The notes under the pieces: generated by a model
The model's input: only the letters and a program-made list of their open reading frames with translations
Databases searched by the model: none
What the model was told of the DNA's origin: nothing
Assembly (NCBI RefSeq): GCF_000426625.1
Contig: NZ_KE384548.1
Location: forward strand, 186,001 to 250,000
DNA: 64,000 nucleotides
Reading direction: 5' to 3'
Source of the DNA: Psychrilyobacter atlanticus DSM 19335
Lineage (GTDB): Bacteria; Fusobacteriota; Fusobacteriia; Fusobacteriales; Fusobacteriaceae
Made by a program: the position numbers and the translations under genes
In this document: positions 1-62,498 of the stretch, piece by piece
How the letters are laid out: each line of letters starts with the position of its first letter
Position numbering within the stretch: the first letter of the stretch is position 1

Positions 1-525
1 ACAGACAGTGAAGCAGAATTAAACTTCATTAAAACTCATTGTGAAAAACTAGATGTGCCGGTAGCTCTATGTGATGTATGGGCTAATGGTGGAGATGGTG
101 GAATAGAACTAGCCAAACTAGTGATAGATGAAATTGAAAACAAGGAAAATAATTTTAAATATCTCTATGAAACAGAAGAGACTATTGTGGAAAAGATAGA
201 AAAGATAGTAAAAAATATCTATGGTGGAGATGGAGTAATATTTACACCTAAAGCTAAAAAGATGATAAAAACATTAAACGAATATGGATACGATAAATTA
301 CCGATCTGTATGTCAAAAACTCAAAAGTCTATCTCAGATGATCCTAAATTGATGGGAAGACCAAGTGGATTTACCGTTACAATAAATGAATTAAGATTAT
401 CAGCAGGAGCAGGATTTATAGTAGCAATGGCTGGAAGTATCCTAGACATGCCGGGACTACCAAAAATACCTTCGGCAGAATTGATCGATATAGATGAAGA
501 TGGAATAATCTCTGGATTGTTCTAA
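1..525 (+). CDS. fhs: Formate--tetrahydrofolate ligase, C-terminal part
   Basis: This is the 3' end of a gene that begins before the window. The visible 174 codons match the C-terminal part of formyltetrahydrofolate synthetase, which makes N10-formyl-THF from formate, THF and ATP. Recognisable stretches are VALCDVWANGGDGG near the start and KTQKSISDDP and LSAGAGFIVAMAG toward the end. The product feeds the two formyl-transfer steps encoded just downstream (PurN and PurH), which explains its place ahead of the purine cluster. The gene stops 15 bases before a purine riboswitch, so it is probably a separate transcription unit. Confidence 0.93.
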   Translation, partial: TDSEAELNFIKTHCEKLDVPVALCDVWANGGDGGIELAKLVIDEIENKENNFKYLYETEETIVEKIEKIVKNIYGGDGVIFTPKAKKMIKTLNEYGYDKLPICMSKTQKSISDDPKLMGRPSGFTVTINELRLSAGAGFIVAMAGSILDMPGLPKIPSAELIDIDEDGIISGLF

Positions 526-539
526 AAAAATTAAATAAA

Positions 540-602
540 CTTATATATACCCATAATATGGTTGGGAGTCTCTACGGTTTGCCTTAAATAAACCGCTATA
601 AG
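540..602 (+). promoter_or_regulatory. Purine riboswitch aptamer, guanine type
   Basis: The aptamer of a purine riboswitch lies just upstream of purL. P1 pairs CTTATA (540-545) with TATAAG (597-602). P2 is built on the CCC/GGG pair around the ATAATATGG loop, and P3 pairs CGGTTT with AAACCG. The J2/3 core reads TCTCTAC. The ligand-reading base in J3/1 is C596 (the C74 equivalent), so guanine or hypoxanthine is the expected ligand. The base before it is G where A is usual. Confidence 0.88.
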
Positions 603-645
603 TAAATGAAAGTACTTGGATAGATCCGGGGGCTATTTTTACTTA
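599..645 (+). promoter_or_regulatory. Antiterminator of the guanine riboswitch
   Basis: TAAGTAAA (599-606) is the exact reverse complement of TTTACTTA (638-645). The first segment overlaps the 3' strand of aptamer P1 and the second lies in the upper stem and loop of the terminator. Ligand binding locks 599-602 into P1, frees the terminator and should switch the operon OFF. Confidence 0.75.
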
Positions 646-8620: not shown

Positions 8621-9183
8621 CAGTTTTAATATCAGGTGGTGGAAGTAATTTACAATCCATAATTGATACTGTCTCTACATCAAAAGTAGAATATGAGATA
8701 TCATGCGTTATAGCAGATAGGGAATGTTATGGTATTGAAAGGGCAAAACAAAATAATATAGTGACAAAAATATTTGATAGAAAGGTATTAAAAAAAGATA
8801 TTTCTAAAAAGATAGATGGATATTTAGGAGATCACGTAGATCTAGTGGTTTTAGCAGGATTTTTATCGATCCTGGATGAAGAATTTATAAATAATAGGAA
8901 GGGGAGGATAATAAATATCCATCCTTCCCTCCTGCCTAAATTTGGTGGGCCTGGAATGTTTGGGATGAGAATTCACCGGGCAGTAATAGATGCTAAAGAA
9001 TCTGAATCCGGCTGTACAGTTCACTATGTAGATGCAGGTATAGATACAGGAGAGATAATAGAGCAAATAAATGTAAAAGTTGACCCAAAAGATACCGCAG
9101 AGATTTTACAAAAGAAAGTATTGGTGGAAGAGCATAAATTGTTGCCAAAGGCTATTGAGCAGGTACTATATAATTTAAAATAA
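8608..9183 (+). CDS. purN: GAR transformylase (formyl-THF dependent)
   Basis: Transfers formyl from N10-formyl-THF to GAR. The 191-residue protein has ISGGGSNLQ (phosphate loop) at the N terminus and the catalytic trio Asn103, His105 (NIHPSLLP) and Asp146 (GIDTGEI). It overlaps purM by 13 bases, so it is probably translated by coupling. It uses the formyl-THF made by the ligase at the left edge of the window. Confidence 0.95.
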   Translation: MFKIAVLISGGGSNLQSIIDTVSTSKVEYEISCVIADRECYGIERAKQNNIVTKIFDRKVLKKDISKKIDGYLGDHVDLVVLAGFLSILDEEFINNRKGRIINIHPSLLPKFGGPGMFGMRIHRAVIDAKESESGCTVHYVDAGIDTGEIIEQINVKVDPKDTAEILQKKVLVEEHKLLPKAIEQVLYNLK

Positions 9184-14924: not shown

Positions 14925-15009
14925 TCCCTTTTATTTGTAGGGAATTTAATTATATGTACAGAAAAAAACTATATATAAAAATACGTAGTTTCACTGGTAT
15001 ATAATTAAA
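14925..15009 (-). promoter_or_regulatory. Expression platform of the glycine riboswitch
   Basis: On the - strand AAACTA and TAGTTTTTTT can form a terminator near 14,965-14,990. Flanking TTTAATTATAT and ATATAATTAAA segments are complementary and could form the competing antiterminator. This fits transcriptional control, with glycine favouring readthrough as in other tandem glycine switches. The detailed folding is inferred. Confidence 0.5.
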
Positions 15010-15091
15010 CTCCTCTGTCCCTTTTACCTGAGAGTTTCGCCCGTTAAGGGTTTGCTCCTTCGGTGTCCATTATTTTGGATCTCTCCAGAGG
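15010..15091 (-). promoter_or_regulatory. Glycine riboswitch, aptamer 2
   Basis: Second aptamer of a tandem pair, read on the - strand. It shows the family hallmarks CTCTGGAGAG, CCGAAGGAGCAAA, GAAACTCTCAGG and the closing AAAAGGGACAGAG. It lies about 95 bases ahead of the symporter start. Confidence 0.95.
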
Positions 15092-15095
15092 TTCG

Positions 15096-15182
15096 TCCAG
15101 TATAGGTCCCACTTTTATTAAATAAAAGCACCTGAAAGTTTTACTTCTTCGGCGATAATTACTTATCTTCTCCCTATACCTT
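15096..15182 (-). promoter_or_regulatory. Glycine riboswitch, aptamer 1
   Basis: First aptamer on the - strand, with TATAGGGAGA, GCCGAAGAAGTAAAA, CTTTCAGG and the closing GGGACCTATA followed by the short linker to aptamer 2. The P1 arms TATAGG and CCTATA pair exactly. Confidence 0.95.
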
Positions 15183-17198: not shown

Positions 17199-17245
17199 TT
17201 GACAGAAAGGAAAATAATTGTTAAAATATTATAAATAATTTAACA

Positions 17246-17308
17246 TCGTATAACTCCAATAATATGGTTTGGAGGTTTCTACCAGGTACCTATAATTCCT
17301 GATTACGA
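17246..17308 (+). promoter_or_regulatory. Purine riboswitch aptamer, adenine type
   Basis: P1 pairs TCGTA (17,246-17,250) with TACGA (17,304-17,308). The core has TAACTCC, AATATGG, GGAG and TTTCTACC as in pbuE/add switches. The ligand-reading base in J3/1 is U17303 (the U74 equivalent), which specifies adenine. It lies directly upstream of adenosine deaminase. Confidence 0.9.
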
Positions 17309-17354
17309 AGAGGGTCTGTTTATACAGCGTTCTTTGTAATGGGAATTTTTTTAT
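17294..17354 (+). terminator. Terminator competing with the adenine aptamer
   Basis: AATTCCTGATTACGAAGA (17,294-17,311) pairs with 17,331-17,347 (about 17 bp, with wobbles and one bulge) and is followed by a T-run. Its 5' arm contains the 3' strands of aptamer P3 and P1. Adenine binding should therefore destroy the terminator and turn the gene ON. Confidence 0.78.
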
Positions 17355-21798: not shown

Positions 21799-23112
21799 AT
21801 GAAAAAAGCAATTTTATATATAAATCAATTTTTCGCTGGAATTGGTGGGGAAGAAAAAGCCGATCATGCTCCAGAAATTAAAGAAGGATTAGTAGGTCCT
21901 TCACTAGCATTAGACTCAGCATTAAAAAATGCAGAAGTAACTCATACAGTAATTTGTGGAGATAACTTCATGGGTTCTAATCAAGATGAAGCAGTTGAAA
22001 GAATTTTAGCATTCTTAGAAGATAAAGAATTTGATATCTTCTTCGCAGGACCATCTTTCCAAGCAGGAAGATACGGAAACGCTTGTGGAGTAATCTGTAA
22101 AGCTGTTAAAGAAAAATTTGGAGTTCCTGTAATTTCATCTATGCATGTTGAAAATCCAGGAGTAAACATGTTTAAAAAAGAAGTTGTTATTTTCCCAGGT
22201 GGTAGAAGTGCCGCTGCAATGAGAAAAGACACTAAGAAAATGGCTGCTTATGCAGACAAAGTTTTAGCTGGAGAAAAAATTGGAACAGCTGAAGAAGAAG
22301 GATTCTACGTAAGAGGAATCAGACATCAAGTAATTGACTTTACAATGGAACCAGCAGCAGTTAGAGGAGTTAAAATGCTTCTTAAAAAATTAGCTGGAGA
22401 AGAATATGTAACTGAGTTACCTATTCCAAAAAGTGATAGAGTAGAGATAGCAGCACCTGTTAAAGATCTATCAACTTCAAAAATAGCAATAGTTACTACA
22501 GGTGGAATAGTACCAGTAGCAAATCCAGATAGAATTCAATCTGCATCAGCTACAAGATGGGGAATGTATGATGTAAGTGAAATGCCAAGATTAGAAGCTG
22601 GAGTATTTAAAACTATCCATGCAGGTTATGATCCAGCAGCAGCAGACGCAGATCCTAACGTATGTGTACCTTTAGATGCACTAAGAGCATATGAGACTGA
22701 GGGGAAAATTGGAAGTTTAGATACACATTTCTATACTACAGTTGGAACTGGAACTACAGAAGCAGAAGCATCTAGAATGGCTGAAGAAATGGTACCATTC
22801 TTAAAAGAACACGGTGTTGACGCCGTTATCATGACTTCTACATGAGGTACTTGTACTCGTTGTGGAACAACGATGGTAAAAGAAATAGAAAAAGCTGGTT
22901 TCCCAATTGTACAAATGGCAAACTTAGTACCGGTTGCGAAAACAGTAGGTGCCAATAAGATAGTTCCTACAATTTCAATTCCTTACCCACTAGGAGATCC
23001 TAATACTTCTAAAGAAGAACAATGGAAGTTAAGATATCATAGAGTTGGAGTGGCGTTAGACGCTCTTGCTACTGACATTGAAGATCAAACAGTATTTGAA
23101 GTTAAGTTTTAA
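21799..23112 (+). CDS. Reductase component B, selenoprotein subunit (GrdB/GrdF/GrdH family)
   Basis: A 437-residue selenoprotein. The frame continues through TGA at 22,843-22,845 (codon 349, TST-U-GTCTRC) with strong coding character on both sides, so the TGA is read as selenocysteine. Component B accepts the substrate and passes the carboxymethyl group to selenoprotein A. GGAGG lies before ATG. The preceding subunit ends 15 bases upstream. It is likely GrdH (betaine) from the transporter context. Ordinary gene callers would split it into pieces ending at 22,845 and starting at 22,873. Confidence 0.92.
22857..22873 (+). promoter_or_regulatory. SECIS-like hairpin after the component B UGA
   Basis: TCGTTGT pairs with ACAACGA around a GGA loop, starting 12 bases after the UGA. 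The distance and compact apical loop fit a bacterial SECIS read by SelB. It is inside the coding sequence. Confidence 0.6.
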
Positions 23113-29975: not shown

Positions 29976-30088
29976 TTGCTTTTTTCTGATTTATAGGGAA
30001 TAATCTGAGTAATTAAACTTCCCCAAGTTTAATTATTGTATGTGTATGTTTTGTAAAAGCCTTAACTTTCGAAGTTAAGGCTTTTACT
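29976..30088 (+). ncRNA. Small RNA unit D1 (remnant, AAGCCTTAA-terminator family)
   Basis: TTGCTT (29,976-29,981), 17 bases, AATAAT (29,999-30,004), then a short transcript with the hairpin TAATTAAACTT/AAGTTTAATTA (30,010-30,035), ending in the terminator AAAAGCCTTAACTT/AAGTTAAGGCTTTT (30,055-30,085). The same terminator stem closes units at 38,856 and 38,989 in the prophage. Confidence 0.5.
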
Positions 30089-30089
30089 A

Positions 30090-30215
30090 TTTATTGGTTC
30101 TTATTCTGACCCTGTAGCTAGTCTATTTTCTACATATTTAATTACTACTTCTTAGCAGTAATATTTTTACTGACAGCCATTGTATGTTTATCTAATGAAA
30201 TTTTCTAAATAGAAA
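30090..30215 (-). pseudogene. Decayed 3' end of a phage baseplate spike (gpV-like) gene
   Basis: This stretch aligns with the 3' end of the intact baseplate V gene at 39,105-39,250. For example GTCTATTTTCT and the CTACTTCTT...GTAATATTTTTA...GCCATTGTATGTTTATCTA segments (in parts) match with scattered changes and about 70 bases missing. On the - strand it still ends ENRLATGSE-stop, compare ENRPTTIPV-stop. It is a remnant of a second, related phage. Confidence 0.65.
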
Positions 30216-30255: not shown

Positions 30256-30378
30256 TTGACTTTTTGTATTTTTTATAGTAATAAAGGTAATAGTATTAAT
30301 ATTTCTTCAAACCAAATATTAATATCACATCTTTAGTTAGAAGTTCTCGTTGACTTTACGGGGACTTCTACTTTTTTT
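30256..30378 (+). ncRNA. Small RNA unit D2 (remnant, conserved-loop family)
   Basis: TTGACT (30,256-30,261), 17 bases, TAATAA (30,279-30,284), about 80 nt of RNA and the hairpin TAGAAGTTC...GGACTTCTA (30,338-30,370) with the loop TTGACTTTA, then TTTTTTTT. Stem sequence differs from the three copies at 43,903-44,384 but pairing and loop are kept. Confidence 0.55.
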
Positions 30379-30443: not shown

Positions 30444-30536
30444 ATGAAAAAAATATTGAAAGGACTCTTTCTTAATCTTAAGATATCATTACGGGATCTT
30501 TTTAAGTCCCTATTTTATGTGCTATACTCTTATTAG
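30444..30536 (+). CDS. Small basic amphipathic peptide (30 residues)
   Basis: Encodes MKKILKGLFLNLKISLRDLF and ten more residues, alternating hydrophobic and basic. AGGGAGGG lies just before ATG, and CCCTC upstream can pair with it (TTCCCTC...GGAGGG), so translation may be controlled by a hairpin. Size and composition resemble small membrane-active peptides of type I toxin systems. No family is recognised. Confidence 0.4.
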   Translation: MKKILKGLFLNLKISLRDLFKSLFYVLYSY

Positions 30537-30558
30537 ATGGGGATAAGGGGGGCTTAGT

Positions 30559-30807
30559 ATTAAAATAAAAATAAATCAAGCATTAAGAAAATTAACTGAA
30601 GAATATACTCTAGATATCGGTTTTGATACCCAAATTATGACAGATATTAATGTTATAAAAGCTAGTCTTTATTATTCCACTTCAAGTGGAAACTTAGTCC
30701 TATCTAATGGTTATAGCCATATAGATGACTATGTAAATATTTCTAAACACACAGAAAATGCAATTGTTGATGCAATAAAAAATATTGATATAACTTTGAT
30801 AAAGTAA
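30559..30807 (+). CDS. Possible protein with non-AUG start (about 82 residues)
   Basis: An open frame of 82 codons with good coding character (INQALRKLTEEYTLDIGFD through NAIVDAIKNIDITLIK). It has no ATG, GTG or TTG near its beginning. GGGGGG lies six bases before ATT 30,559, a possible but rare start, and the frame opens just upstream after TAA. It may be a live gene with an unusual start or a gene that lost its start codon. A possible extended -10 (TGCTATACT) precedes it. Function unknown. Confidence 0.4.
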   Translation: MKIKINQALRKLTEEYTLDIGFDTQIMTDINVIKASLYYSTSSGNLVLSNGYSHIDDYVNISKHTENAIVDAIKNIDITLIK

Positions 30808-31059
30808 TTGAAATCCCCCATCTAACTTCTCTATCACTCAGAAACAAAGCTTTTTTACATTTTTTGATAGTTTTTTTCTCCGTCTTTTCGGCATTTTTTA
30901 TTATATTAAAAGAGTACTAAAAAAAGAACATTAAGTACTCTTTTCTCTAATAAAACTCTGTTTGCATTGGTTTTTAGATAATATTCAATATTAATTTTTT
31001 ATTACTATCTTTAAGTTGTAAAACCAAGAAATTAAGTTAGAGAGTTTAGAAATATATTA

Positions 31060-31480: not shown

Positions 31481-31618
31481 GTGAAAAAAATAATGTGGTA
31501 TACGATAAGATGGTTTAAATATTATATATTAAATCCTCATTATGAAAAATTTTATGGAAATTTTGAAAACTATTGTAAACAGCGAAAAATGTATGAAAAA
31601 AAGCATAATATTAAATAA
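31481..31618 (+). CDS. 45-residue basic aromatic protein, copy 1
   Basis: Starts at GTG nine bases after GGGGGG and reads MKKIMWYTIRWFKYYILNPH, ending EKKHNIK. It is rich in Tyr, Trp, Lys and Arg and has no membrane segment. It is a tandem paralogue of the gene at 31,867 with about three quarters of residues identical. Each copy has its own palindromic leader hairpin. I do not recognise the family. Confidence 0.6.
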   Translation: MKKIMWYTIRWFKYYILNPHYEKFYGNFENYCKQRKMYEKKHNIK

Positions 31619-31620
31619 TA

Positions 31621-31660
31621 ATAAAAAAAGGTTGAATTTTTTTCGACTTTTTTTTGTTAT
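31621..31660 (+). terminator. Terminator after the first 45-residue gene
   Basis: AAAAAAGGTTGAA can pair with TTCGACTTTTTT, followed by more T. Confidence 0.6.
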
Positions 31661-31866: not shown

Positions 31867-32004
31867 ATGAAAAAACTAAGATGGTATTTGATAAGATGGT
31901 ATAAATATTATATATTAAATCCCCATTATGAAAAATTTTATGGGAGTTTTGAAAATTATTGTAAACGGCGAAAAATACATGAGAGAAAACATCATATTAA
32001 ATAG
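31867..32004 (+). CDS. 45-residue basic aromatic protein, copy 2
   Basis: Starts at ATG behind GGGAGGGAGGAA and reads MKKLRWYLIRWYKYYILNPH, ending ERKHHIK. The central YYILNPHYEKFYG block is identical to copy 1 and differences cluster at the ends, which suggests selection on the core. The start sits exactly 386 bases after that of copy 1, as expected from a tandem duplication. Confidence 0.65.
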   Translation: MKKLRWYLIRWYKYYILNPHYEKFYGSFENYCKRRKIHERKHHIK

Positions 32005-32104
32005 TAAAGAAGAGTAATCGATTTTTTTTAGTCTTGGGATGTTAAATAATCGCGGACAAAATTTAAAGAAAACTGAAAACAAAAAAATAAATGATACTAA
32101 ATAA

Positions 32105-38712: not shown

Positions 38713-38757
38713 TATTCTTCACCTCACTTAAGATTTTCTAAAATATGAACCCTAAAT

Positions 38758-38848
38758 TTGACTTTTTGAGCATTTAAAGATACTATAATTAAGCATTCAA
38801 TGCCTCAAAATTGTTTTGCACTAAAACAGGATTTTTTCCTGTTTTTTT
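38758..38848 (+). ncRNA. Small RNA unit U1
   Basis: TTGACT (38,758-38,763), 17 bases, TACTAT (38,781-38,786), then about 55 nt ending in AAACAGGA/TCCTGTTT and TTTTT. It is on the + strand, opposite to the phage genes, in a gap between gpV and gpU. Confidence 0.5.
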
Positions 38849-38855
38849 TATTTAA

Positions 38856-38958
38856 TTGATTTTTTATAATTTATAAGTGATAATAAATACGAGTATAGTT
38901 TGTCATATATTCTTTTCCTTTTTAAAAGCCTTAATTTCCTAGAGTTAAGGCTTTTACT
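38856..38958 (+). ncRNA. Small RNA unit U2
   Basis: TTGATT (38,856-38,861), 17 bases, GATAAT (38,879-38,884), about 65 nt, then AAAAGCCTTAA/TTAAGGCTTTT. The terminator stem is shared with U3 and D1. Confidence 0.5.
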
Positions 38959-38988
38959 ATTTTATTTATAATTATTGATAAAATAAAT

Positions 38989-39093
38989 TTGCTTTTTTGG
39001 AATTTATAATGAATACTATGAATAAGAAGACCTGTTGATCTTCATGTTAATTACCTTTTAAAAGCCTTGACTTGCAGAGTTAAGGCTTTTACT
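38989..39093 (+). ncRNA. Small RNA unit U3
   Basis: TTGCTT (38,989-38,994), 17 bases, AATACT (39,012-39,017), a GAAGA/TCTTC hairpin, then AAAAGCCTTGA/TTAAGGCTTTT. It ends ten bases before the gpV stop codon on the other strand. Confidence 0.5.
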
Positions 39094-39104
39094 ATGTTAA
39101 AATA

Positions 39105-43387: not shown

Positions 43388-43876
43388 CAGGTATCGCCTC
43401 CATCCATTTAACTAGATCTATAAGTTTCAAATCATTAAAAAATTTTATCCCAGTTTTAGTAGCCTGTCCTATCTTTATCATATTGCTCCTAAACTTTAAA
43501 ATTTTTTCTGGTTCATTTAGATCTACGATAATAAGAAACCCTTAACCACTTCTACCAAGACATCAAAATCTGAATGTTTTAACTCTAAGATAGCTTCATA
43601 AGGTAGATCTGCAGCTGCAGCTCCTACGGCAGCTTGATATGCCTGTCCGAATTTAATCTCTGAACTAGAACTATAATATTTACCCTGGGAGACTACCTCT
43701 GCTTCACACAACTTAGCTCCAGTCAAAGAATTGAAATCCATTTTTACTTCTTTAATCTCCACATCATTAAATTTAACAGGGTGTTTTAAATTAATAGTAG
43801 TTACTCCACCGACTACAGTTACATAGTCTTTTTTTATTTTTTTATCTACTGATTTAAGTTCTTTATTTTCTTTCAT
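43380..43876 (-). CDS. Tail assembly chaperone E+E' (-1 frameshift product)
   Basis: The gpE frame contains the slippery heptamer G-GGT-TTC at 43,541-43,535, four codons before its stop. A -1 slip continues through an open frame of 51 codons (VDLNEPEKILKFRSNM to KWMEAIPDE) that stops inside the tape measure start. The fusion would be about 165 residues. P2 makes gpE and gpE+E' in exactly this way, and many tailed phages do the same with their tail assembly chaperones. Confidence 0.8.
43523..43876 (-). CDS. Tail assembly chaperone E
   Basis: A 117-residue protein of the P2/Mu tail assembly chaperone E family (VTTINLKHPVKFNDVEIKEV near the N terminus). It wraps the tape measure protein during tail assembly. 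It is the short product; the long form arises by frameshift. It lies between the tube gene and tape measure as in P2, but with a 508-base gap upstream holding small RNA units. Confidence 0.86.
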   Translation of the reverse strand: MKENKELKSVDKKIKKDYVTVVGGVTTINLKHPVKFNDVEIKEVKMDFNSLTGAKLCEAEVVSQGKYYSSSSEIKFGQAYQAAVGAAAADLPYEAILELKHSDFDVLVEVVKGFLLS

Positions 43877-43902: not shown

Positions 43903-44024
43903 TTGACTTTTAGTAATTATTAAGGTACTAATACTAGTGTATTGATATTATAGCTAGTAAATATTAATGCCATATGTTTCTTTCCTCAAAGAGTTCTTGT
44001 TGATTTTACAGGGGCTTTTTGTTT
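43903..44024 (+). ncRNA. Small RNA unit U4 (conserved-loop family)
   Basis: TTGACT (43,903-43,908), 17 bases, TACTAA (43,926-43,931), about 85 nt, then the hairpin AAAGAGTTC...GGGCTTTTT (43,988-44,020) with loop TTGATTTTA, followed by GTTTT. First of three tandem copies on the + strand. Confidence 0.6.
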
Positions 44025-44120
44025 TAGAGGATTATTATTTAATTTTTTAAATTCCTTCTTCTATCTTTCCTTCTGATTACTTGTCTTCAGGCATTTTGTT
44101 TTTTTTCTTTCATTTATTCC

Positions 44121-44238
44121 TTGACTTTTAGTATTTTTAAAGGTATTAATACTAATGTGCTAATATCAACACCCAGTAGTATTGGTACCATAATTTCTCA
44201 AAGAGCTCTTGTTGATTATACGAGAGCTCTTTGTTTTA
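44121..44238 (+). ncRNA. Small RNA unit U5 (conserved-loop family)
   Basis: TTGACT (44,121-44,126), 17 bases, TATTAA (44,144-44,149), about 80 nt, then AAAGAGCTC...GAGCTCTTT (44,200-44,232) with loop TTGATTATA and GTTTT. Confidence 0.6.
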
Positions 44239-44266
44239 ATAATATTTATTACTAAAAACTTTTAAG

Positions 44267-44384
44267 TTGACTTTTGTTTATCTTTGGAGTAATAAAATAG
44301 TGTAATACTGTTTATTAGACCAAACATAATTACAACCTTCAAAGTTAAAAAGTTCGCGTTGACTATACGTGGACTTTTTACTTT
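44267..44384 (+). ncRNA. Small RNA unit U6 (conserved-loop family)
   Basis: TTGACT (44,267-44,272), 17 bases, TAATAA (44,290-44,295), about 80 nt, then AAAAAGTTC...GGACTTTTT (44,347-44,379) with loop TTGACTATA. The hairpin ends just before the tube gene stop codon on the other strand. Confidence 0.6.
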
Positions 44385-44900
44385 TTATAGGAAATCATCA
44401 TTATCTAGATAATTGATACCATCTACTACAAATTTATTGTTAAGTTTATCAATATGAAGAGTTTCTATCTCATCTACAAATATTCTTAAACTAATTACTT
44501 CAAATTCTGCTTCTGTATCCATAGCTTTAGCTGTTTCTGCTTTTCCTAAGTTTTTGTTCTTAGGAGTTACTTTAGCCATGATTCTAATCTTTCTATTTTT
44601 CACCCTTCCTATAGGACTTCCTGGATCAGCCATCTGAAGATTACCTCTAAAAGCTAATTGATGCATGATAGGTGCAAGAAGTGTTGTAAATTGAGCATTA
44701 ACCGCTCTCTTCTTTATTTTCATTCCCATAGATTTAGTTAACCCGGCAATAGGAACTTCTAATTCTCCTGCTATTCCAGAACCTGTAACTGTATCGGTCA
44801 TAAACTGGATATTAGGTAATTCTACGTCTACTGTTCCTATTTCTTTTAATGCATTTAAATACAAACTAAATCCTTGTAGGGATATTGGAAATCCATTCAT
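44385..44900 (-). CDS. Phage major tail tube protein
   Basis: A 171-residue P2 FII-family tube protein, the inner pipe of the contractile tail. Signature features are LYLNALKEIGTVDVELPNI near the N terminus and KIRIMAKVTPK near residue 107. It overlaps the sheath gene by one base. Confidence 0.9.
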   Translation of the reverse strand: MNGFPISLQGFSLYLNALKEIGTVDVELPNIQFMTDTVTGSGIAGELEVPIAGLTKSMGMKIKKRAVNAQFTTLLAPIMHQLAFRGNLQMADPGSPIGRVKNRKIRIMAKVTPKNKNLGKAETAKAMDTEAEFEVISLRIFVDEIETLHIDKLNNKFVVDGINYLDNDDFL

Positions 44901-59756: not shown

Positions 59757-59938
59757 TTGACTTTAGCGTTTTTTTAAGGTAAAATTAATTTATAATGAGC
59801 ATACCAATTTGTATACATTCCTCATCCCAGTTGGAATGTATGCTGCTCATAAGGGTAAATTCATTTCGGACAGTGAATTTACTTACTTTTCCTCTGAGCC
59901 TCTAGTTATCTAAATAATTAGAGGCTCTATTTTTATTT
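59757..59938 (+). ncRNA. Small RNA unit U8 with three hairpins
   Basis: TTGACT (59,757-59,762), 17 bases, TAAAAT (59,780-59,785). The RNA of about 145 nt folds into ATGAGC/GCTCAT enclosing ATACATTCC/GGAATGTAT, then GTAAATTC/GAATTTAC, then the terminator GAGCCTCTA/TAGAGGCTC and TATTTTT. Nearly all of it is paired. No known RNA family is recognised. Confidence 0.6.
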
Positions 59939-59973
59939 AGTTAATTTAGTTAATTTTATTTATTTAGATAAAC

Positions 59974-61542: not shown

Positions 61543-61772
61543 AGGCTCCTCCTAAAAAATATAATTCTTTGGTCAAGTTTAATTATATAGGGAACTACAA
61601 AAAAATAAAAGTATTTTTTTTAAAATTGCTTTAATCATTATTAAATATGGGCTACTTACCCTAAACATTTTAGTAATTTTAATTTTAAAATCATTATTTT
61701 CTTTTCTTCACTTAGTTTTCACAAACAAATCATATAATCATTTTACAGAAAAGAATACAGAGGAGGAAAGAG

Positions 61773-62114
61773 ATGAAGAAAAAGATTTTATTATTTACAG
61801 GGGTAGTTTTAATGGGGATATTTATGTATAGTATGCCTTACACTAGCAGCTTAAATGGAACTAGCATAAGCCAAACAGGGAATTCTTCAGAATTGAAGTT
61901 ACAATATAGAAAAGGACTTTATTATGAACTAGGAAAAGGTACACCGTTTACAGGTAAAATGAAAGTTAATTACGAGAAGGAGTATGTAAATAGCGAAGGT
62001 AATTATAAGACCAAAGAAGCAATTTTTGAGAATGAATATGTGAATGGAGTTATAAAAAATACAAACTATTATACTCAAAATGGAACTTTTGAATATAATG
62101 TTAAAAAAATATAG
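61773..62114 (+). CDS. Exported YwqK-like protein, copy 1
   Basis: A 113-residue protein with a signal peptide (MKKKILLFTGVVLMGIFMYS). The mature part resembles a single YwqK/MORN-type unit (YYELGKGTPFTGKMKVNYEK ... NEYVNGVIKNTNYY), a motif seen in secreted fusobacterial proteins and some toxin-antidote pairs. AGGAGG precedes ATG; CATATAAT lies about 50 bases upstream as a likely -10. First of a tandem pair. Confidence 0.7.
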   Translation: MKKKILLFTGVVLMGIFMYSMPYTSSLNGTSISQTGNSSELKLQYRKGLYYELGKGTPFTGKMKVNYEKEYVNSEGNYKTKEAIFENEYVNGVIKNTNYYTQNGTFEYNVKKI

Positions 62115-62156
62115 AATATAATCATTTTACAAAAAAGAATACAGAGGAGGAGTTAT

Positions 62157-62498
62157 ATGAAGAAGAAGATTGCACTACTTACAGGGGTAGTTTTAATAGG
62201 GATATTTATGTATAGTATGCCTTACACTAGCAGTTTAAATGGGACGAGCATAAGCCAAACAGGGAATACGTCACAATTGAGGTTACAATATAAAAAAGGA
62301 CTTTATTATGAACTAGGAAAGGAGACACCATTTACAGGTGAAATGAGAGTAAATTATGAAAAGGAATATATAAATAGTGAAGGTAATTCTAAGACCAGAG
62401 AAGCATTTTTCAAGAATGAATATGTGAATGGACTTTTAAAAGAAACAAACTACTATAGTCAAAATGGAACTTTTGAATATAGTGTTAAAAAAATATAG
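62157..62498 (+). CDS. Exported YwqK-like protein, copy 2
   Basis: A 113-residue paralogue of the preceding gene, about 80 percent identical, with the same signal peptide and repeat unit. The starts are 384 bases apart and the ribosome-site region (ATAATCATTTTACA, CAGAGGAGGA) is duplicated too, so the unit arose by tandem duplication. A strong terminator follows. Confidence 0.7.
   Translation: MKKKIALLTGVVLIGIFMYSMPYTSSLNGTSISQTGNTSQLRLQYKKGLYYELGKETPFTGEMRVNYEKEYINSEGNSKTREAFFKNEYVNGLLKETNYYSQNGTFEYSVKKI

What the first reader, a model, noticed from the sequence alone, without database searches (positions are those of the whole stretch)
43903..44384. Three tandem phage small RNA units with covarying stems and an invariant loop
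Seen: three copies, each TTGACT-N17-hexamer promoter, about 80 nt, then a terminator hairpin, all on the + strand inside a - strand tail module. A fourth copy lies at 30,256 in the phage remnant. The 9-bp outer stems differ (AAAGAGCTC/GAGCTCTTT, AAAGAGTTC/GGGCTTTTT, AAAAAGTTC/GGACTTTTT, TAGAAGTTC/GGACTTCTA), yet pairing holds in all. Three further base pairs also covary. The nine-base loop TTGA(C/T)T(T/A)TA is kept in every copy. Inference: an RNA family under selection, perhaps binding a phage or host regulator or another RNA, or a buffer against late transcription. I know no described family that matches.
Basis: partly seen in the sequence, partly recalled or inferred. Interest (0 to 1): 0.8.

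Follow-up and report, generated by a model that had tools for sequence, protein, structure and literature searches.

The report
Antisense small-RNA cassettes in phage tails
Prophages of a marine fusobacterium carry tandem, self-contained small-RNA genes running backwards inside their tail operon; the RNAs form an old, structure-conserved family not in Rfam, and some copies stay intact in the bacterial chromosome after the phage around them has decayed.

Summary
Three + strand units (43903-44026, 44121-44238, 44267-44385) fill the gap between the tail-tube and tail-chaperone genes of a myophage-type prophage; a fourth (30256-30376) lies in a remnant. Covariance models find about 20 distinct members, confined to this genus and related metagenomic phages; Rfam has no match. 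Covariation is strong (terminator helix 98% paired, 9 of 13 pairs changed on both sides), and G-U pairs mark the + strand as the RNA. The loop is conserved, not invariant. Relatives have either a 9-66 nt gap with no unit, or one to three units, always antisense; two more distant phages hold unrelated promoter-terminator units at the same junction. A second antisense array sits between baseplate genes. Tandem units belong to old subfamilies, so they are not recent duplicates. A chromosomal orphan shared by two species is 95% identical against 67% in its flanks. Best reading: noncoding 'morons', sRNA genes probably expressed in lysogeny and acting partly in trans, perhaps in superinfection exclusion; expression and target are untested. 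Prophage moron-site and antisense sRNAs are a known kind; this family and its arrays are new.

The parts
43903..44026 (+). unit 1 (subfamily B): -35 43903-43908, -10 43926-43931, 5' hairpin about 43939-43970, terminator hairpin 43988-44020 (weak T-tract)
44121..44238 (+). unit 2 (subfamily C): -35 44121-44126, -10 44144-44149, 5' hairpin about 44157-44188, terminator hairpin 44200-44232
44267..44385 (+). unit 3 (subfamily D): -35 44267-44272, -10 44290-44295, 5' hairpin about 44301-44334, terminator hairpin 44347-44379, ending at the tube stop codon
30256..30376 (+). unit 4, chromosomal orphan (subfamily A) in a decayed prophage: -35 30256-30261, -10 30279-30284, 5' hairpin 30293-30325, terminator hairpin 30338-30370; same locus in genome G058
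43523..43876 (-). tail assembly chaperone gene flanking the array (PHROG 3140)
44385..44900 (-). tail tube gene flanking the array (PHROG 55 'head closure'; its hits in named phages are annotated as major tail tube FII protein)
38758..38850 (+). second array, unit 1: TTGACT promoter and terminator AAAACAGGATTTTTTCCTGTTTT; other RNA type, related units in L019, L095 and L100
38856..38960 (+). second array, unit 2 (type 2): TTGATT promoter, hairpin 38923-38956
38989..39095 (+). second array, unit 3 (type 2): TTGCTT promoter, hairpin 39059-39091
29976..30092 (+). type 2 unit next to orphan unit 4 in the remnant

Best explanation
Each unit is an autonomous small-RNA gene (sigma-70-type promoter, about 85-nt RNA with two hairpins, intrinsic terminator) carried as a noncoding 'moron': accessory DNA inserted between two late genes, in the orientation in which its terminator cannot cut the late operon. 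Shown by sequence: gene anatomy, covarying structure, + strand identity, moron-like presence and absence, antisense orientation, retention in decayed prophages. Inferred: the RNAs are made from the prophage in lysogeny and act at least partly in trans. The most likely single mechanism (about 0.35) is antisense pairing with the tail mRNA of related incoming phages, nucleated at the exposed hairpin loop, so that this mRNA is cleaved or blocked (superinfection exclusion). A host RNA as target is almost as likely (rival 1).
For: About 20 divergent members found by covariance model; covariation above all shuffles and slid controls; G-U 22 against A-C 3 in the terminator helix on +; autonomous promoter conserved most; empty junctions of 9-66 nt in relatives against 103-508 nt with antisense units, and unrelated antisense units at the same junction in L026/L030 and L028; second antisense array at a baseplate junction; orphan unit 95% against 67% in flanks between two species; units kept in decayed prophages. 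Precedents: STnc6030, antisense to tail genes of BTP1, excludes BTP1 (PMC7067206); moron-site sRNAs of EHEC prophages (PMC4104026).
Against: No transcript has been seen. The -10 boxes are weak and copy 1 has a poor T-tract. If self-antisense pairing were the only function the loop would be free to drift, yet it is rather conserved. The RNA covers an intergenic stretch, not the chaperone ribosome-binding site. The retained units could partly reflect one ancestral deletion.
Confidence: 0.5

Rival explanations
1. Trans-acting sRNA for the lysogen: the conserved terminator loop binds a host mRNA, a host sRNA (sponge) or an RNA-binding protein, as with AgvB and AsxR of EHEC prophages.
For: Loop far more conserved (0.72) than the linker (0.25) and first loop (0.32); shared by a type-2 stem in L020 and L096; orphan conserved in the chromosome.
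Against: No consistent target in window translation-initiation regions; loop not invariant; some related phages and genomes lack units.
Confidence: 0.3
2. Cis-acting only: antisense transcription or RNase III cleavage at the junction keeps tail genes silent in lysogeny or sets the tube to chaperone/tape-measure ratio.
For: Always antisense, at two late-operon junctions; unrelated sequences occupy the same junction, so position may matter more than sequence.
Against: Orphan conserved outside any operon; some phages have no unit at either junction, e.g. L027; antisense orientation is expected anyway because a sense terminator would be polar.
Confidence: 0.2
3. Selfish or near-neutral promoter-terminator DNA that accumulates where it does no harm.
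For: Dispensable; several unrelated types share the junctions.
Against: Compensatory changes in both helices, conserved promoter, orphan constraint.
Confidence: 0.12
4. RNA anti-CRISPR (Racr-like repeat mimic).
For: Only a loose likeness: phage-borne solitary hairpin RNA (recalled, not tested further).
Against: No Cas1 in the host genome while the control search rings in 9 of 14 genomes; no CRISPR family hit in Rfam scans.
Confidence: 0.02

Closest known systems
EHEC prophage moron-site sRNAs (EcOnc01/AgvB, EcOnc02/AsxR; PMC4104026)
   Same: Families of short prophage sRNAs at a conserved moron insertion site, convergent to the late direction, with a conserved 3' part and a variable 5' part
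   Different: Lambdoid phages, site downstream of PR', 51-60 nt, Hfq-bound; here tail and baseplate junctions, about 85 nt, two hairpins, tandem arrays, no sequence relation; F. nucleatum, in the same phylum, lacks Hfq and ProQ (PMC11005410)
STnc6030 antisense RNA of Salmonella phage BTP1 (PMC7067206)
   Same: Antisense to late tail-region genes of a prophage; trans effect when expressed from a plasmid
   Different: About 500-786 nt, overlaps coding sequence, single locus; here about 85 nt, intergenic, structured, multi-copy; exclusion untested
Phage morons
   Same: Inserted between genes adjacent in relatives, with own promoter and terminator, opposite to the late operon
   Different: Classical morons encode proteins; these have no evident ORF
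OOP RNA of phage lambda
   Same: Short antisense RNA with own promoter and terminator, near a gene's 3' end (recalled, and as described in PMC7067206)
   Different: Regulates cII in the immunity region, single copy; not homologous (no Rfam match)

Membership tests
Phage moron | Extra DNA between two genes that are adjacent in a close relative | tested here: met
   Gap 9 nt in L097 (tube 88% identical) against 318 nt in L017 and 508 nt here
Phage moron | Own promoter and terminator | tested here: met
   Most conserved columns are -35/-10; terminator hairpin in every member; generic scan calls only two terminators and none of these promoters
Phage moron | Expressed from the repressed prophage | not testable with these tools
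   No transcriptome at hand
Phage moron | Protein-coding gene | tested here: not met
   The ORF list (60 aa or more) shows none in the units; conserved part is a hairpin. Hence 'noncoding moron' by analogy, not plain membership
EHEC moron-site sRNAs (AgvB/AsxR) | Sequence homology or Rfam match | tested here: not met
   Rfam scans of the window and the array
EHEC moron-site sRNAs (AgvB/AsxR) | Base-pairs with host sRNAs or mRNAs | tested here: inconclusive
   No consistent target in window translation-initiation regions
Superinfection-excluding antisense RNA (STnc6030 type) | Transcribed antisense to the late operon | tested here: met
   Orientation in all in-operon members; transcription itself untested
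Superinfection-excluding antisense RNA (STnc6030 type) | Plasmid expression blocks the cognate phage | not testable with these tools
   Needs an infection assay
RNA anti-CRISPR (Racr) | Host carries a CRISPR-Cas system whose repeat is mimicked | tested here: not met
   No Cas1 in the host genome; CRISPR types lacking Cas1 not excluded

The most novel reading that the evidence does not exclude
Tail operons of these phages are hot spots for interchangeable noncoding RNA cassettes: diversified antisense sRNAs that exclude related phages, some of which the host keeps as chromosomal anti-phage RNAs after the prophage decays.
Probability: 0.2. Interest if true: 0.8.

Novelty: new variant of a known kind. 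Interest (0 to 1): 0.55.

Why it matters
Morons are mostly thought of as protein genes, and most phage sRNAs are known singly from enterobacterial phages, found by RNA-seq. Here comparative genomics alone shows a structured RNA family in ordered tandem arrays at late-operon junctions of fusobacterial phages, unrelated cassettes at the same junction, and a constrained chromosomal orphan. It gives a testable set of RNAs for lysogeny, superinfection exclusion and domestication in a phylum whose best-studied member lacks Hfq and ProQ (PMC11005410).

Tried and rejected
Recent duplication: rejected, units of one phage sit in different subfamilies. DNA cruciform or - strand hairpin: disfavoured by G-U asymmetry. 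Hit in another genus (G044): not counted; it reads as an ordinary terminator hairpin without the unit's promoter. Other families of the order: no hits in 35 genomes. Named phages: no DNA match to the array. Loop pattern elsewhere in viral contigs: model R2 finds no members in the loci outside known relatives. Targets in window translation-initiation regions: nothing consistent. The loop resembles the -35 box (TTGACTTT), so it might pair with the late mRNA just upstream of the chaperone ribosome-binding site; matching runs of 8 in 5 of 20 units, 4-7 in the rest, so only a weak lead. Rfam sub-threshold hits (PyrR, Leu_leader) taken as chance.

Full report
What is there. The window holds a myophage-type prophage whose late genes run on the - strand (PHROG hits: sheath, tube, tail assembly chaperone, tape measure, baseplate). 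In the 508-nt gap between the tube gene (44385-44900) and the chaperone gene (43523-43876) lie three + strand units: TTGACT, 17 nt, a weak -10, a 5' hairpin, a linker, and a 13-bp hairpin with a 7-nt loop and a T-rich tail. A fourth lies at 30256-30376. The hairpin pattern is absent from 100 shuffles of the window.

A family, not a local repeat. Covariance models from five and then fourteen copies find six copies in this genome: the four in the window, one in a second prophage at C3:841,563 and one in a third at C2:1,505,686, both at the same tube-chaperone junction. Further members are in four other genomes of the genus and in metagenomic phage contigs. In 96 genomes of the order nothing else is credible. 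On a sequence-only alignment of 14 members the terminator helix is paired in 98.4% of cells with 9 of 13 pairs changed on both sides, the 5' helix in 86.4% with 4 of 10. None of 500 shuffles reaches the observed values for paired cells, changes on both sides or covariation score (18 of 500 do for further pair types), and sliding the partners drops pairing to 43-53%. The rows are related, so these counts are not probabilities.

Which strand. In the terminator helix of 20 members the non-Watson-Crick cells are G-U 22 times and A-C 3 times when read on +. Copy 1 folds at -24.6 kcal/mol on + and -6.8 on -. Either the + strand RNA is kept in shape, or a hairpin on the late mRNA is selected against as well; a DNA cruciform would not give this asymmetry.

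What is conserved. Column identity: -35 0.93, -10 0.84, terminator stem 0.73-0.76, its loop 0.72, 5' stem 0.62, linker 0.25, first loop 0.32. The loop GTTGAYTWTAC is common, but GTCGACTTTAC, ATCGATTTTAT, GTTATTTTTAC and GTTTAAATAC occur: conserved, not invariant. A type-2 stem in L020 and L096 carries the similar GATTGACTTTATC loop.

Place and orientation. In close relatives the tube-chaperone gap is 9, 44, 48 or 66 nt without units (L097, L025, L027, L096) and 103-508 nt with one to three, always antisense to the late operon. In the Propionigenium maris prophage L026 (=L030) and metagenomic contig L028 the same gap holds promoter-terminator units of other sequence, also antisense; one looks shared by L026 and L028 (my reading of the sequences, not scored). 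A second array lies between two baseplate/tail genes (window 38713-39104); my reading of the gap sequences is one to three antisense units in nine of twelve phages compared, none in L018, L026 and L027. In a simple terminator scan of these gaps the only late-sense terminator belongs to a toxin-antitoxin-like insert in L096; the same scan misses several antisense hairpins, so it is a rough control. A terminator in the late direction would be polar on the operon, so antisense orientation is expected of any such cassette and does not by itself show antisense function (inference).

History. In a tree of 20 units the three of this prophage fall in different subfamilies; from chaperone to tube the order B, C, A/D fits this prophage, L017 (C, A) and L020 (B, C) (several forks are weakly supported). 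This suggests an old array with losses rather than recent duplication.

Orphans. Copy 4 lies at the same chromosomal locus in a second species (G058; L091), beside a fatty-acid-synthesis-type gene. The unit is 115/121 identical, the alignable flanks 180/270 (Fisher p=6e-11); flank alignment is imperfect because of indels. Decayed prophages in G058, G059 and G054 keep type-1 and type-2 units with short tube remnants while most structural genes are gone. These may share one ancestral deletion, so they are not counted as independent events. Gene conversion of copy 4 from resident prophages is unlikely, as the prophage copies of this genome belong to other subfamilies. Constraint outside the operon argues for a trans function.

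Mechanism. Shown: anatomy, structure, strand, insertion pattern, retention. Inferred: expression in lysogeny and action in trans. I put antisense exclusion of related phages at about 0.35: each RNA is perfectly complementary to the late mRNA of any phage with the same unit, and STnc6030 of BTP1 is an experimental precedent with a 3' seed (PMC7067206). A host or sRNA target through the conserved loop, as for AgvB/AsxR (PMC4104026), is nearly as likely. Target searches in the window gave nothing firm. CRISPR-repeat mimicry is unlikely, as the genome has no Cas1.

Novelty. Prophage sRNAs at moron sites and antisense to late genes are known, so the kind is known. The family is absent from Rfam 15 and from named phages by DNA similarity. 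I found no paper using a term for noncoding morons, and none on prophages of this genus (the library lacks most subscription journals). Ordered tandem arrays at two late junctions, with unrelated cassettes at one of them, make it a new variant.

Noticed in passing
window 59757-59940 (+): Another likely sRNA gene: TTGACT-N17-TAAAAT, three hairpins, the last a terminator (GAGCCTCTAGTTATCTAAATAATTAGAGGCTC then T-rich). A homologous stretch survives in the decayed prophage of L091 (about 8800-8980).
   Followed up: partly
L096 (G058:C2), baseplate gap of 879 nt: The gap holds what looks like a type I toxin-antitoxin pair (small hydrophobic peptide reading MWISILVALIAVSPQISKEIRAWIDW..., with an antisense hairpin RNA) beside the antisense units.
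   Followed up: no
L028 1780-2333 and L026 6517-6860: Unrelated antisense promoter-hairpin-terminator units (four and two by eye) in the same tube-chaperone gap; one type looks shared by both phages.
   Followed up: partly
window 31482-31649 and 31868-32035: Two 83% identical repeats, each with a short basic ORF of about 45 aa (MKKIMWYTIRWFKYYILNPHYEKFYG...).
   Followed up: no
window 30501-30836: Stretch next to the orphan unit, with an apparent small ORF, 95.8% identical to G058 although its surroundings are decayed.
   Followed up: no
window 61723-62022 and 62107-62406: Two 87% identical repeats with 113-aa ORFs without Pfam match, beyond the prophage.
   Followed up: no
window 521-618, 15005-15098, 17226-17325, 22846-22883: Two purine riboswitches, a glycine riboswitch (- strand) and a SECIS_4 element, at Rfam gathering scores.
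   Followed up: no
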